Origin: Campylobacterales bacterium
GTDB lineage: Bacteria > Campylobacterota > Campylobacteria > Campylobacterales > Sulfurospirillaceae
NCBI GenBank assembly: GCA_016930915.1
Contig: JAFGFU010000023.1
Location: 1-44,255 of the forward strand
Direction: 5' to 3'
Length of the DNA stretch: 44,255 nt
Below the pieces are notes generated by a model. That model saw nothing but the letters and a program-made list of their open reading frames with translations, was not told the DNA's origin and searched no databases. The first letter of the stretch is position 1. Every line of letters starts with the position of its first letter. A program made the position numbers and the translations under genes. Positions 1 through 6,104 of this stretch are shown here, piece by piece.

Positions 1-297
1 AAAACTATAATCATCAGTTTCTGCATAACGTTTTTTTAAATTTACAAGCTCTTTAGCATGTTCATCAAAATTACCGAATAAGATTGAATAATCAGCTTTA
101 AGTAACACTGTATTTACAAATTGCCTATAAAAAGGGTTTAAATCAACAGCACTCCCTAATTCTAGAACAATATTTTTTTCGTACAGTTCAAAAGGGATAT
201 TTTTGGAGTGCACAGAAGTTGGATTTTTATAAATTTTATCAATCAATTCATTGTTGGCACTTAGCAGTTCGATTAATTTTTGATGATTTGTTTTCAA
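1..297 (-). CDS. Unrecognised protein, partial (C-terminal part outside the window)
   Basis: The frame is open from a TTG at 297 to the left edge, giving at least 99 residues. The TTG is preceded by an AGGA ribosome binding site six bases upstream, inside the end of the extended nuclease frame. The visible peptide starts LKTNHQKLIELL and later reads NPFYRQFVNTVLLKADYSIL. It is mostly helical in character, with no signal peptide or membrane segment. I do not recognise the family. It lies directly downstream of the OLD-type ATPase gene on the same strand and shares its AT-rich composition, so the two are probably co-transcribed. Its role is unknown; a partner in the same accessory locus is an inference from position only. 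Confidence 0.55.
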   Translation of the reverse strand, partial: MKTNHQKLIELLSANNELIDKIYKNPTSVHSKNIPFELYEKNIVLELGSAVDLNPFYRQFVNTVLLKADYSILFGNFDEHAKELVNLKKRYAETDDYSF

Positions 298-299
298 AA

Positions 300-422
300 T
301 TATCCTCGGGTTGCTTCTTTAATTTTTTCAAACCATTCTTTGATTTCTTCAAATGCTTCGAGTTCTTCAAGGTGTTGTTTAGTTAGTTGTTTAGACAATT
401 CTTCATTAAATCTTTGCTTCAC
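300..422 (-). other. In-frame continuation of the OLD-type nuclease beyond a TGA stop
   Basis: Beyond the TGA at 423-425 the same frame stays open for 40 codons and closes at the TAA at 300-302. The peptide is charged and helical (RFNEELSKQLTKQHLEEL, then EEIKEWFEKI). This resembles the conserved C-terminal tail I remember from related ATPases (an R-hydrophobic-N start, an MT-like turn, L-E-E, then E-I-x-x-W-hydrophobic). The next gene's ribosome binding site lies just at its end. This suggests the TGA is a recent nonsense mutation, a recoded codon or a base error, and not the ancestral stop. Confidence 0.6.
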
Positions 423-2246
423 TCAACTAACTTTTTTCTTCTTTATGTCTTTATTTTCAATCTCATCCCAATTCTGTTCAGAAGTAGGTGCATTATTATG
501 CACATATTTAGCTACTTCTTCCCCTAAATCTAATTTATTCCAATTGTCATCATAAACAATAGGAAAACCTTCATAAATACTATTTATAATATGTGGATGT
601 ATATAGTTTTCCATTTCTCTTTTTGTGGTTTCAAAGGTGAAATTTCTTAATCCTTGGCTATGAATAGATGCAAAATAAGGACTATATTTATTGGGTTTTT
701 CAGATCCTATGTCACTATCATAAATATGAACTTGATTTATTTGTAAATTTTTTAATAAATTTTTATTTACCCAATACTGAATTGCACTTCCACCCATAGG
801 GATCATAAGTATTTCATCATTATTTTTTAATTGAATAATTGTTTTATATTCATTAATTTGTTCATTGATATTTAAAAGAAACTCTATATCTAATTTGCCT
901 TCTAAACAAACTATACATTTTACTTTTGAAATATTTTGAACATCTATACTTGGTAATACACCTAGCGTATTTTTTATATCTTCAAATAACAATTCAGAAT
1001 CTTCATATTTTTTTATATTCCCATTATGGTCTCTAATTATTGCAATTACATTTTGAAGCTCAACCATTTTTGCAATATTGGGCGTATGTGTAGTTATGAT
1101 AACTTGATGATCTTTATGATTCGAAAGTTCTAGTAGTGATTCAATTAGCATTTTTTGATAGTCAGGATGTTGTGAAGTTTCAGGCTCTTCAATTGCATAA
1201 ATTACACTTTGATTGTATCTGTCATTTATTTTTCTGTCAGCTTCAGCTCGGAAGTAATTTAAAAGAACTAATCTTCTTACCCCACTACCTCTTTTGTTTA
1301 AAGGGATATCATCTCCTCCTGTAAAAGAAAATTTAAAAACGGATTTCCAATCAGGTTCTTTAGAATAATTTGGATTTAACGATGAAGCTATTGCAGGATC
1401 CATCTCTTGAAGTTTCAATAATGTGCTATCTCCAACTTCTTTTATTTGTTTTTGCATTAATTTCTCAACTTCATCAAGTTTTTCTTTTATTTCATCACTT
1501 TGAAGTGCCTTTTGTATAGCAATTTTTAATGGATTTTGTACGTCATCATCGCTATCTTTATTGGCACGATCGGATTGAAATAAAAAATATAAAGGTAAGT
1601 TTTTATCAATACTCTCTTTTAAATTCTTAGACTCATCACTTTTAGCTAAATCAATTGTAATTGTTGTTCGCTCCTCTTTATCTTCATCTTCAAGTTTATA
1701 TCGATACAGCTCTTTTCTCATTAAAGCGTTAATTTTTTTGGGAAGTCTATTAAATTCTTCTTCATTTAAAAACTCTTCCAATTCTTCTATTTGCTTTTGA
1801 AGTTCTTTCTCTTTCAACATAATTAATGGTTTATCTTTCCAAACGGTAGGGTATTCACACTCTAAAAAATATTTTTTACTAGTAGCTTTTATAGGTTTTG
1901 AACAATCCCATTCTTGAATTAGAGTTAAAAAGTTATTTTTATCTAACAAAAACTCTTCTTCTAAATTTGTAGGATTTGAAGAATCAATTACTATTGTATC
2001 AAAAGGTTCAATTTCAAAAGACAATGTAATTTTAAGTGTATTTATTCCATCGTTCTTTGCATAAATATTTAAATCATCTTGTAAAAGTTTCACTAAATCA
2101 TTATTAAAAAAAATCTCTAATGCTTCTAATATGGTAGATTTTCCAATATCATTCTTGCCAATTATTACATTCATATTATTATCAAAACTAATATCCAATT
2201 CTCTATAACTTCTAAAATTTTCTAATCTCAATTTTTTTAGTTTCAT
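423..2246 (-). CDS. OLD-family ATPase/TOPRIM nuclease, probably truncated
   Basis: This 607-residue protein belongs to the overcoming-lysogenization-defect (OLD) group: an SMC/ABC-like ATPase fused to a TOPRIM nuclease domain. Visible motifs are Walker A GKNDIGKST (30-38), an ABC signature-like region around GSGVRRLVLL (320-329), Walker B IYAIEEPE (349-356), and an H-loop TTHT (385-388). The TOPRIM acid is in CLEG (E449), with DSD at 510-512 and a family-typical REMENY stretch near 543-548. I chose the ATG at 2246 because GGA lies just upstream; an earlier in-frame ATG at 2294 would overlap sbcC and start inside it. The gene follows sbcC by 25 bases and probably reads through from that operon. 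It is more AT-rich than sbcCD and lacks the TTACATGTAA repeat, which suggests acquisition. Many OLD-type enzymes act in phage defence or DNA processing; that role here is inference. The stop at 423 appears premature. Confidence 0.85.
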   Translation of the reverse strand: MKLKKLRLENFRSYRELDISFDNNMNVIIGKNDIGKSTILEALEIFFNNDLVKLLQDDLNIYAKNDGINTLKITLSFEIEPFDTIVIDSSNPTNLEEEFLLDKNNFLTLIQEWDCSKPIKATSKKYFLECEYPTVWKDKPLIMLKEKELQKQIEELEEFLNEEEFNRLPKKINALMRKELYRYKLEDEDKEERTTITIDLAKSDESKNLKESIDKNLPLYFLFQSDRANKDSDDDVQNPLKIAIQKALQSDEIKEKLDEVEKLMQKQIKEVGDSTLLKLQEMDPAIASSLNPNYSKEPDWKSVFKFSFTGGDDIPLNKRGSGVRRLVLLNYFRAEADRKINDRYNQSVIYAIEEPETSQHPDYQKMLIESLLELSNHKDHQVIITTHTPNIAKMVELQNVIAIIRDHNGNIKKYEDSELLFEDIKNTLGVLPSIDVQNISKVKCIVCLEGKLDIEFLLNINEQINEYKTIIQLKNNDEILMIPMGGSAIQYWVNKNLLKNLQINQVHIYDSDIGSEKPNKYSPYFASIHSQGLRNFTFETTKREMENYIHPHIINSIYEGFPIVYDDNWNKLDLGEEVAKYVHNNAPTSEQNWDEIENKDIKKKKVS

Positions 2247-2271: not shown

Positions 2272-4641
2272 TTACAACTCCACAACTCTCTCAAACATCT
2301 CTTTTATCTCTATCTCATGACTTATCAAAAATATCTGTCGGTACTGTTCTTTTATGGTATGAAACGCTTCTAGGATTTGCATTCTTCGGTTTTCATCTTG
2401 GCTTCCGAAGACTTCATCGAAGGCTAAAAATCCCACGCTACTTGCACCGTTCAGTTCACTCAGTGTTTTGGAGATGGCGATGCGAAGCACTAGGTTGGCA
2501 AGGTCTATCTCGCCGCCGCTGAAGCGTTCTATGGGGTAGCATTTGCCCTCGTCGTAGATGAAAAAGTCAAAGTCGTTGTTCACTTCGATGGTTTGGTATT
2601 TACCTTTGGTGATGGTGGCGTACATCTGCGAGGCGATTTGCGAGATGCGTGGGGCGATTTTTGAGTTGAGTTTTGTTTTAAACTCGCTAAGGCTTAGTTT
2701 GATTTTCTCATAGTCTTGTAAATCATCTTTTTTACTCTGTACTTTTTTGAGTTGTATGTCGTTATTTTCCAGAGCGTTTTGTAAGGTTTTTATCTCGCCC
2801 TCATTTTTGGCTATCTTTTCTTTTAGCTCTGAAATAACACTGTATTGTTTCTCTTTTTGCTTTTGGAGTTCGTCGTATTCACTTTGTTTGGCTGTATGTT
2901 TTGGCTCATCGTACAGTGTTTTTGAAACTTCCAGTTCTTTCTCTTTTGCCTTTACATGTAAAGCTTCTGCACTCTTACATGTAAGCGAGAGATCCTCCCT
3001 CACGCCCTGCTCTCGTTTGAGTTCAGTTTCAAGGCTTAGTACGGTTTCATACTTTGGTTTTAGCTCTAAAAAGCTTTTTTGTAGGCTTACATGTAAGGCT
3101 TCATCGTAAGTGTGTTTTGAGAGGGTGTCTAGCTCTTCTTTGTTGTGTTTGCCTTGTTCACTGACTTTTGTAAAATGCTCTTTGGCACTTGCCAAATCTT
3201 TTTGCTTGCTTCCTATCAAACTAAGAGCCGTTTCGTTTACATGTAAGGCTTTTTGCGTTTGCTCTTTTTGAAGTTCGAGCTCTCCTATCTGTTTGGTGAG
3301 GAGTTCAAGCTTTTCTTTGGTTTTGTCTATCTTTTGGCTTTGTGTCTTTTGCACGATGTCATTTAGAGATGCGATGACATTGTCGTATTCATCCAGCAGT
3401 TGTCGTGTACATGTCGGACAGTTTGATTCTCGACCTAAGCTTTGTATCTTGGCTATCTTTTGTTGCGTGTCTAAGACAACTCGCTGTTCTGCTGAGAGTT
3501 CGTTTTGAAGTTGTTTTTGCTCTGTTTGCTTTGCCAAAAGTTCGGTTTTTAGCTTCGTTGACAAGGCTTCATGTTCTTTTTTTTGTCCTAATAGTGTCTC
3601 ATACGGTTTGGTTTGTTCTTCCAAAGTTGCGATGTCTGCTTTGGCTTTGGTGTACTGGGCACGCAATTGGGTTTGCTCTTTTTCCAAGCCCTCTTTTTTG
3701 ATCTGTATATTTTTGAGATTTTCTTGCTCTTTTAGCTTTACATGTAAAGATTCGTACTCTTTTTTGACAGTGCTTAAACTTTTAAGCTCTTTGGCTTTTA
3801 TTTCTAAGTTTTTGAGCTCGGTGGTGAGTTTGGTTTGCGTGGCTAGGTTTGAAGTTATCGTGTTTTTGATGAGGGAAAGTTCGCTGATGAGTTTTTGTTT
3901 TTGCTCTTTTGTTTTGACAAAGAGTTCGAGTTCTTGCTTTACATGTAACTCTTGTTTTTTGGTGGTTCCTAGCTCTAAGGATTTGATTTTTACCTCTTTT
4001 TCAAAGGCTTGTTTTATGGAGGTATTTTCTTTTATCAACGCTGTTTTGCTTTTGAGTTCTTCTTCGCCTAAGAGAAATTCCGCAGAAGCTGCGATGTCAC
4101 GTTTGAGTTCTCTGCTTTTTTCGATGAGTTCATTTTCCACAAAGTCTATCTTTTCAAGCCCCAAAAGGCGGCGTATCATCTTTTTTCGATCTTCATTTTT
4201 AAGCGTGCTGAGGCTGGTAAGCTCTTTTTGAGAAGCGAATAGTGTATGCAAAAAAGCATCTTTGCTCATCTTCGTTAGTTTCGTGATAGCCATCGTCACC
4301 TCTTTGGCTCCACTGGTAGTCATCGCTTCATTTTTATAAAGCTTAGCATTTGGTTTTAAATCTTTCCCACGAAACTCACGAATGACTTTGTACGCCATGT
4401 CTTCAAATTCAAAATCAAGCTCGACCACAACGGCATCTTTATCACTGGCGTTGACGTTTCGCATTACTTCTTTGTACTTTCTATTTTTCAGCTCACCATA
4501 CAAGGCAAAGAGTATCGCTTCAAAAAGCGTGGATTTGCCACTGCCATTTTTACCGATGATACCGATAAGCCCCTCGCCAAACTCGATGTCAAAAGAGGTG
4601 TAGCGTTTGAAGTTTTCAAGGTGAAGGCTAGAGAGTATCAT
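2272..4641 (-). CDS. sbcC: Exonuclease SbcC, ATPase subunit
   Basis: This is the SMC-like ATPase subunit of the SbcCD nuclease, which opens and cuts DNA hairpins and palindromic cruciforms and processes double-strand ends. The 789-residue protein shows Walker A GKNGSGKST (30-38), long heptad-rich coiled coils on both sides of a zinc hook CPTC (408-411), an ABC signature FSGGE (707-711) and Walker B FLAFDE (D742, E743). It is shorter than the E. coli protein (just over 1000 residues) through shorter coiled coils. The start overlaps the end of sbcD by 14 bases, so translation is coupled. Six perfect copies of TTACATGTAA lie within it. Five are read Leu-His-Val and one Leu-Thr-Cys, all in the coiled-coil arms, where such insertions or drift would be tolerated. 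Confidence 0.95.
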   Translation of the reverse strand: MILSSLHLENFKRYTSFDIEFGEGLIGIIGKNGSGKSTLFEAILFALYGELKNRKYKEVMRNVNASDKDAVVVELDFEFEDMAYKVIREFRGKDLKPNAKLYKNEAMTTSGAKEVTMAITKLTKMSKDAFLHTLFASQKELTSLSTLKNEDRKKMIRRLLGLEKIDFVENELIEKSRELKRDIAASAEFLLGEEELKSKTALIKENTSIKQAFEKEVKIKSLELGTTKKQELHVKQELELFVKTKEQKQKLISELSLIKNTITSNLATQTKLTTELKNLEIKAKELKSLSTVKKEYESLHVKLKEQENLKNIQIKKEGLEKEQTQLRAQYTKAKADIATLEEQTKPYETLLGQKKEHEALSTKLKTELLAKQTEQKQLQNELSAEQRVVLDTQQKIAKIQSLGRESNCPTCTRQLLDEYDNVIASLNDIVQKTQSQKIDKTKEKLELLTKQIGELELQKEQTQKALHVNETALSLIGSKQKDLASAKEHFTKVSEQGKHNKEELDTLSKHTYDEALHVSLQKSFLELKPKYETVLSLETELKREQGVREDLSLTCKSAEALHVKAKEKELEVSKTLYDEPKHTAKQSEYDELQKQKEKQYSVISELKEKIAKNEGEIKTLQNALENNDIQLKKVQSKKDDLQDYEKIKLSLSEFKTKLNSKIAPRISQIASQMYATITKGKYQTIEVNNDFDFFIYDEGKCYPIERFSGGEIDLANLVLRIAISKTLSELNGASSVGFLAFDEVFGSQDENRRMQILEAFHTIKEQYRQIFLISHEIEIKEMFERVVEL

Positions 4642-5746
4642 CGCTCACCTCTTCGTAGCTGACAAATAATTCTTGAATCTTTGATTTGAGTCGTTCAAAC
4701 TCCTCGGATTTACTACCTTCTTTGATGTGTTCTAAAAAATACGCTTCCAAAGAGAGTGCTTCGATGTCGTTTAGTGTGGCTTCACCGTTGGTTTGTTTGA
4801 ACTCTCTTTTGATAGTTACATGTAACGCTTCGCTAAAGAGATTTTTGATGTCACGGGTTTGGATGTCGATTGACTGCAATGGGGTAAGATTGGTCAATTT
4901 GACTTCGACAAGAGCGTCTTTTGTATCTTCTACATGTAAAGCCTCAACAGCGTTCTCATAGTCTTTACAATCAATCTCGTAGGTTTTGATGGGGCGTATA
5001 GCTATCTCGTGGTAGTTTACATGTAAAGACGCATCTAGCGTGAGTTCAAGGAAACCTTTGGAGTTTCGTTTGTCATTTAAACTGGTGCGCTCGGTTGAGC
5101 CTGCATAGTAAACGTTTTCGTGCTTACCGACTTTTCCAAAGCCATGCCAATGCCCAAGAGCGACATAATCCACTTTGGAAAAAAGGCTCTCTTTATCGTG
5201 CGGATACACCCATTCGCCAAACTCTGCCATGAGATAGTGCGCACCGACAGAACAGTGAAGCATCATGATATTGCGTTTAGTTGTATCGATGTTTGCTTCG
5301 CACAGTTCAATTTGAGAAAGTGCTTTGCTCTCATCGTGCATATGCGGTAAAGTGTGAAAGACCACATCGTCAAACTCAATTTTTTTGTACTCTTGATTGT
5401 ATGAGACATAAATGTTTTTAAAGTTTTCAAATATTTTGAGGATGGGGGAGCTTAGATTGGTACGAGGTGTGCTGTGATTGCCCGCTATCATGATAAAGGG
5501 GATATTCAGTGCTTCGATGATTTTAAATTGCTCAAGCGCAAAGGTGATGGCGCGATTGCTAGGAGATGGGCGGTGAAAAAGATCACCCGTATGGATGATA
5601 TAGTCAGGTTTTATTGCTTTAATCTGTTCAATGACTTGCATAAAAGCATCGTAAAAATCAGCCTCTCGTTGGTTGATACTTGCGTTATTGATAGCATCTA
5701 AATCGTTAAAGCCTAAATGCGTGTCCGAAAAATGAATCAGTCTCAC
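4628..5746 (-). CDS. sbcD: Exonuclease SbcD, metallophosphoesterase subunit
   Basis: This is the Mn-dependent nuclease subunit of SbcCD. The 372-residue protein opens with the phosphoesterase motifs FSDTHLG, GDLFH and GNHSTPR, followed by LHCSVG and GHWHGFG, which supply the metal ligands. The start is a GTG at 5746; the protein begins directly with the first motif (RLIHFSD), as usual in this family. The C-terminal third is variable and carries two perfect TTACATGTAA copies (4816 and 5017, both read Leu-His-Val) plus a nine-of-ten copy at 4930. It is the first gene of the sbcD-sbcC pair. Confidence 0.95.
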   Translation of the reverse strand: MRLIHFSDTHLGFNDLDAINNASINQREADFYDAFMQVIEQIKAIKPDYIIHTGDLFHRPSPSNRAITFALEQFKIIEALNIPFIMIAGNHSTPRTNLSSPILKIFENFKNIYVSYNQEYKKIEFDDVVFHTLPHMHDESKALSQIELCEANIDTTKRNIMMLHCSVGAHYLMAEFGEWVYPHDKESLFSKVDYVALGHWHGFGKVGKHENVYYAGSTERTSLNDKRNSKGFLELTLDASLHVNYHEIAIRPIKTYEIDCKDYENAVEALHVEDTKDALVEVKLTNLTPLQSIDIQTRDIKNLFSEALHVTIKREFKQTNGEATLNDIEALSLEAYFLEHIKEGSKSEEFERLKSKIQELFVSYEEVSDDTL

Positions 5747-5850
5747 GATACTTCTTTATGATTAATTCTTTCGATTATAGCCAATATTATTACAGCTTAG
5801 AAGAAATTTGTGAGGAAAAGGAAAGGATGTGGGGAGATTGGAAAAAAAGA

Positions 5851-5877
5851 AACGCTCGAATGGGCAGTTCGAGCGTT
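5851..5877 (-). terminator. Intrinsic terminator downstream of tRNA-Asn
   Basis: A perfect 10-bp inverted repeat (AACGCTCGAA / TTCGAGCGTT) with a seven-base loop is followed on the minus strand by TCTTTTTTTC. It therefore acts on leftward transcription, most likely that of the tRNA-Asn gene at 6030-6104, and shields sbcD. The rest of 5747-6029 holds no credible gene. It has a weak A/T dyad around GGAGG at 5901-5919 to which I cannot assign a role. Confidence 0.75.
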
Positions 5878-6029
5878 GATATAAAATTGATAGATTGTTC
5901 ACAAAAAGGAGGTTTTTGTCTTACAAGTGAAAGTATAGGGGATTAACTTAAATGATAAACTAACAGTTATTAAACAAATCATAAATCAATGCGAGAAAGA
6001 AAAAAATTTAAAGGAAAATTTAAAAAGAG

Positions 6030-6104
<75 letters not shown>

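What the first reader, a model, noticed from the sequence alone, without database searches (positions are those of the whole stretch)
300..2246. In-frame TGA cuts an OLD-type nuclease before a conserved-looking tail
Beyond the TGA at 423 the frame remains open for 40 codons with a charged helical peptide that resembles the tail of related ATPases, and the next gene's ribosome site lies exactly at the end of this extension. Options are a fresh nonsense mutation, a base error, or TGA recoding. Members of this phylum can make selenocysteine, but I see no obvious adjacent stem-loop, and UGA selenocysteine here would be unexpected.
Basis: partly seen in the sequence, partly recalled or inferred. 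Interest (0 to 1): 0.65.

Follow-up and report, generated by a model that had tools for sequence, protein, structure and literature searches.

The report
OLD nuclease gene cut by stop
A bacterial anti-phage-type nuclease gene carries a premature stop codon that removes its last 41 residues, which all aligned relatives keep; this looks like ordinary gene decay (or possibly a base error near a contig end), not a hidden recoding event.

Summary
On the minus strand an OLD-type gene (423-2246) stops at TGA 423-425 after 607 codons, and its frame stays open for 40 more codons to TAA 300-302, where the next gene's ribosome site (GAGG, 304-307) lies. The 40 codons are the genuine conserved C-terminus: all 27 full-length relatives aligned continue past the TGA column and none ends there; the nearest tail is 26/40 identical; K610 and W638 are essentially invariant.

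The residue at the TGA column varies freely (Cys once, Trp never). The genome does encode tRNA-Sec, SelB and a Sec-UGA formate dehydrogenase, but that site folds at -15.1 kcal/mol while the window site reaches about -2 and fails the published bSECIS model (-7.5 or lower). Recoding is unlikely.

Best reading: a recent premature stop in a Class 1-like OLD nuclease inside a variable cargo site behind sbcC. It cuts mid-helix and probably removes the catalytic lysine and final helix, so nuclease activity is probably lost. A base error cannot be excluded: the window is a whole contig and the TGA lies 423 nt from its end. Ordinary; low interest.

The parts
423..2246 (-). OLD-type ATPase-TOPRIM gene as encoded (607 codons + TGA)
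   Evidence: Pfam AAA_15 E=1.5e-74
2136..2159 (-). Walker A, GKNDIGKS (residues 30-37)
   Evidence: invariant positions in A1/A2
711..902 (-). TOPRIM acidic residues E449, D453, D510, D512 (first to last codon)
   Evidence: invariant in A1, A2 and A3
423..425 (-). premature in-frame TGA (codon 608)
   Evidence: no relative ends here
303..422 (-). cut-off conserved C-terminal tail, 40 codons
   Evidence: 26/40 identical to L040; BLASTP 2e-14
417..419 (-). K610, invariant lysine two codons past the TGA; candidate catalytic lysine (equivalence to BpOLD K562 / GajA K541 inferred)
   Evidence: K in 21 of 21 non-redundant sequences
300..302 (-). TAA that ends the read-through frame
304..307 (-). ribosome-binding site GAGG of the next gene, inside the last codons of the tail
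1..297 (-). next ORF (TTG start), cut by the contig end; N-terminus of a 352-392-aa protein that elsewhere precedes a 175-aa gene and an SMC-like ATPase
2272..4641 (-). sbcC, directly upstream of the OLD gene; border of a variable cargo site

Best explanation
A Class 1-like OLD nuclease gene, carried in a variable cargo site behind sbcC, has recently gained a premature stop. Shown: the frame stops at codon 608, relatives do not stop there, and the lost 40 codons are the conserved C-terminus. Inferred: the 607-residue product keeps the ATPase and the TOPRIM acidic residues but loses an invariant lysine (probably the catalytic one) and the terminal helices that complete the nuclease domain. It should therefore be nuclease-dead or unstable, and the 125 untranslated nucleotides before the next start may weaken translation of that gene. 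The stop is read as a stop.
For: Tail present in 27 of 27 full-length relatives, ending at the TGA in none. Tail identity to L040 26/40 against 177/383 for the ATPase and 65/155 for TOPRIM; the tail has not drifted more than in intact relatives (mean tail-minus-body identity -0.08, others -0.03 to -0.17), so the stop is recent. The predicted helix 599-615 (599-620 in the domain model) is cut at residue 608; the tail is modelled at pLDDT 87-95 and 93-98. The C-terminal domain model matches OLD C-terminal domains end to end (6nk8 Z 10.3, rmsd 3.2, 164 aligned, model 11..218; TsOLD Z 8.6, rmsd 3.4, 135 aligned). Known OLDs carry a catalytic basic residue in this region: GajA K541A abolishes activity (PMC8136825), BpOLD K562A/E impairs it (PMC6755086). 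No bSECIS; variable residue at the site. Other relatives in the phylum also carry internal stops (L042, L043, L048).
Against: Not verified on reads; a base error would give the same picture. No close intact allele is known (the nearest relatives are about 47% identical), so the ancestral codon is unknown. In E. coli YbjD, deleting the whole TOPRIM domain kept the anti-phage phenotype (PMC13261556), so the truncated product may still do something. The equivalence of K610 to K562/K541 rests on its being the only invariant basic residue there and on its distance from the C-terminus, not on a residue-level superposition.
Confidence: 0.78

Rival explanations
1. Base error in the assembly: the living cell has a sense codon and makes the intact 648-residue protein.
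For: The window is a whole contig of 44,255 bp and the TGA lies 423 nt from its end; the tail shows no drift and the operon junction is intact.
Against: The rest of the contig is densely coding with no obvious broken genes; 423 nt is further in than a typical short-read edge. Neither point is decisive.
Confidence: 0.17
2. UGA recoded as selenocysteine, giving a 648-residue selenoprotein.
For: The genome has tRNA-Sec (55.2 bits, anticodon TCA), SelB, and a formate dehydrogenase with a Sec-UGA.
Against: Best fold behind the TGA is -1.5 to -2.2 kcal/mol; the best hairpin of the right geometry is +1.7 (fdh control: -15.1 and -6.2). The published bSECIS model asks for -7.5 or lower (PMC13188914). 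Cys at the site in 1 of 27 relatives; no conservation of the column.
Confidence: 0.01
3. Partial stop read-through: mostly a 607-residue product plus a little full-length protein, with the tail kept by selection.
For: Tail not drifted; UGA is the leakiest stop (general knowledge).
Against: No relative shares the TGA, so there is no conserved arrangement; no structured element follows it. A recent mutation explains the undrifted tail equally well.
Confidence: 0.04

Closest known systems
Class 1 OLD nucleases (T. scotoductus OLD 6P74, P2 Old, E. coli YbjD/OldB)
   Same: Single gene, N-terminal ABC ATPase plus C-terminal TOPRIM with E...DxD; the full read-through model aligns to 6P74 over residues 2..647 (Z 17.8, rmsd 16.3, 417 aligned).
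   Different: Lies in a cargo site beside other defence-like genes, and the encoded product lacks the last 41 residues.
Class 2 OLD / GajA (Gabija), incl. BpOLD and XccOLD C-terminal domains
   Same: Best match for the C-terminal domain model (6nk8 Z 10.3, 6njw Z 10.0), with a helical part behind TOPRIM.
   Different: No UvrD-like GajB seen downstream; the next gene is unrelated to it (but the contig ends there).
PARIS AriA/AriB (fused AriAB exists)
   Same: The ATPase half scores best with an AriA model, which covers only the AAA_15 part (E=7.3e-66); AriB 8ux9_A matches the C-terminal model at Z 8.0, rmsd 5.7, 171 aligned.
   Different: PARIS usually has two genes; no AriB family model matches the C-terminal half.

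Membership tests
OLD family nuclease | N-terminal ABC ATPase with Walker A/B and H-loop | tested here: met
   AAA_15 E=1.5e-74; invariant Walker A (G30...S37), E353-E356, H387
OLD family nuclease | C-terminal TOPRIM with invariant E and DxD | tested here: met
   E449, G450, D453, D510, D512 invariant
OLD family nuclease | C-terminal domain fold of solved OLD proteins | tested here: met
   6nk8, 6njw, 6njv, 6njx, 6p74 are the top five, Z 8.6-10.3, on the read-through model
OLD family nuclease | catalytic basic residue behind TOPRIM present in the encoded product | tested here: inconclusive
   The only invariant basic residue there, K610, lies past the TGA; equivalence to K562/K541 is inferred
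Class 1 OLD | stand-alone gene, no GajB helicase and no retron | tested here: inconclusive
   Next ORF is not helicase-like, but the contig ends inside it
Gabija (GajAB) | adjacent UvrD-like GajB | tested here: inconclusive
   Not seen in 1-297 or upstream; the contig end prevents a full test
PARIS | AriB-type TOPRIM partner | tested here: inconclusive
   Single fused frame; no AriB model hit, but fold match Z 8.0
Selenoprotein | bSECIS hairpin 16-37 nt behind the UGA, MFE -7.5 kcal/mol or lower | tested here: not met
   -1.5 to -2.2 kcal/mol; the genome's own fdh Sec site passes at -15.1
Selenoprotein | Cys at the UGA column in homologues | tested here: not met
   Cys in 1 of 27, column unconserved
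Selenoprotein | host has tRNA-Sec and SelB | tested here: met

The most novel reading that the evidence does not exclude
The TGA is read through at a controlled level, so that the cell makes a nuclease-dead 607-residue form and a small amount of active 648-residue OLD nuclease, with the stop acting as a safety catch in front of the catalytic lysine.
Probability: 0.03. Interest if true: 0.7.

Novelty: new member of a known kind. Interest (0 to 1): 0.15.

Why it matters
If true as read, it is one more case of a defence gene being lost by a point mutation in a cargo site, and it marks the C-terminal tail as a required part of this OLD subgroup (an invariant Lys and a near-invariant Trp). It also gives a clean negative example for selenoprotein prediction in a genome that does use selenocysteine.

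Tried and rejected
Selenocysteine: tested against the published model and the genome's own fdh site; rejected. Shuffle z-scores of the fold are not discriminating: the fdh control itself gives z = -0.14, so I relied on absolute energy and geometry. Trp (TGG to TGA) idea: no relative has Trp. Rfam around the TGA: only chance matches. Close intact alleles: none in 24 genus genomes, 44 family genomes, IMG/VR, or phage DNA; the first viral scan with the single protein found nothing, the alignment query found 23 loci. A sequence search with the C-terminal profile against PDB gave only chance hits, so the residue-level match of K610 to K562/K541 could not be shown. Two family searches failed on a wrong frame and were redone.

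Full report
WHAT IS THERE. The minus strand from 2246 to 423 is a single open frame of 607 codons with a good start (AAAGGAACAAT-ATG) that ends in TGA at 423-425. In the same frame 40 codons follow, then TAA at 300-302. The next ORF starts with TTG at 295-297, and its GAGG lies at 304-307, within the last codons of the extension.

IS IT MORE THAN CHANCE. An open run of that length is not: 8 of 46 long ORFs in this AT-rich window are followed by 40 or more open codons. The homology is. The 40-aa tail alone matches the C-terminus of L040 with 26 identities of 39 aligned (E 2e-14) and of L036 with 19 of 35 (E 4e-11). Shuffled tails never exceed 30.8 bits, against 74.9 for the real one.

WHAT THE GENE IS. 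The protein has an AAA_15 ABC-type ATPase (E=1.5e-74) and a C-terminal TOPRIM region with invariant E449, D453, D510 and D512. A predicted model of the C-terminal 219 residues (pLDDT 89, pTM 0.86) has solved OLD C-terminal domains as its top five matches: 6nk8 Z 10.3 (rmsd 3.2, 164 aligned), 6njw Z 10.0, 6njv 9.8, 6njx 8.8, 6p74 8.6, all running to residue 218 or 219 of the model. It is an OLD-type nuclease. By context it is Class 1-like (single gene, no GajB seen), but the contig ends in the next gene, so this is not settled (class definitions from PMC10568477).

THE TAIL. I aligned 27 full-length relatives from genomes of the same phylum, plasmids, a clostridial genome and viral contigs. All 27 continue through the tail; none ends at the TGA column. 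In the 21 non-redundant sequences (window included) K610 is present in 21, W638 in 20 and E634 in 19. The identity of the tail to the nearest tail (26/40) exceeds that of the ATPase (177/383) and TOPRIM (65/155) parts to the same protein. Across all pairs the window's tail has not drifted faster than tails of intact relatives. The stop must therefore be recent, or an error, or read through.

THE RESIDUE AT THE STOP. The column holds K 6, A 4, D 3, I 3, N 3, G 2, T 2, C 1, H 1 and two gaps. It sits at the edge of a variable linker. No Trp, no conserved Cys.

SELENOCYSTEINE. The host does use it: tRNA-Sec with anticodon TCA, SelB, and a formate dehydrogenase interrupted by one TGA in the context HVARI-UGA-HSAS. 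This gave a positive control. The 51 nt from the fdh UGA fold at -15.1 kcal/mol, with a hairpin loop GUG 19 nt behind the UGA; the window site reaches -1.5 over the same length and -2.2 over 66 nt (one 66-nt stretch beginning three bases upstream gave -3.8), and its best hairpin that obeys the geometry is unstable at +1.7. The published bSECIS model demands -7.5 or lower (PMC13188914). Shuffle z-scores did not separate the control (z -0.14), so they are not used as evidence.

HOW IT MOST LIKELY WORKS, OR FAILS. In the full model the helix 599-615 is cut at 608, and the following helices, including the last one at 632-646, are lost; all are predicted with high confidence. In BpOLD the last helix packs along the TOPRIM sheet and K562 of the helix before it reaches the active site; K562A/E impairs processive cleavage (PMC6755086). 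GajA K541A abolishes cleavage (PMC8136825). GajA K541 lies 37 residues before the end of its 578 residues; K610 lies 38 before the end of the read-through frame, and it is the only invariant basic residue behind the acidic motifs. That K610 is the same lysine is inference. If so, the product cannot be a normal nuclease. The ATPase part is intact, and in E. coli YbjD the ATPase part alone kept an anti-phage phenotype (PMC13261556), so residual function is possible.

SETTING. sbcC ends 25 nt upstream of the OLD start. In nine loci from eight other genomes of the genus sbcC is 89-94% identical and each carries a different gene set directly behind it, several with AAA or OLD-like ATPases. The OLD gene is cargo of this variable site; no other genome of the genus or family has a close copy. 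Related genes in the phylum also carry internal stops (L042, L043, L048), so decay of such cargo is not rare.

VERDICT. A premature stop in an ordinary defence-type gene, probably a real recent mutation (0.78), possibly a base error near the contig end (0.17), with about 0.05 left for recoding or read-through. Interest is low.

Noticed in passing
window 2272 (3' end of sbcC) and L058-L066: The 3' side of sbcC is a variable cargo site in this genus: nine loci from eight genomes keep sbcC (89-94% identical) and each carries different, often defence-like genes directly behind it.
   Followed up: partly
window 1-297 (-); L113 1077-7028; L112 10463-12150: The next gene is the N-terminus of an unnamed 352-392-aa family (no Pfam, PADLOC or NCBIfam hit). 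In L113 it precedes a 175-aa gene and a 1190-aa SMC-like ATPase (JetC model E=2.9e-6): possibly a divergent Wadjet/Mks-like operon that current models miss.
   Followed up: partly
L112 148-12150: In genome G158 a relative of the OLD gene (4201-6036) and the putative Wadjet-like genes lie in one stretch of about 12 kb with other large ATPase-like genes.
   Followed up: no
L035, L037, L039: Plasmid relatives of this OLD gene lie next to restriction endonuclease and/or DNA methyltransferase genes.
   Followed up: no
L004, L031-L033, L041, L044-L046, L092-L094: A related group shares the ATPase half (about 40-47% identical) but has a different C-terminus with a motif like IRHQIHHPEN in place of TOPRIM.
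   Followed up: no
G000:C23:117607-118473 (L070): Formate dehydrogenase with an in-frame Sec-UGA and a bSECIS-like hairpin; used as positive control.
   Followed up: yes
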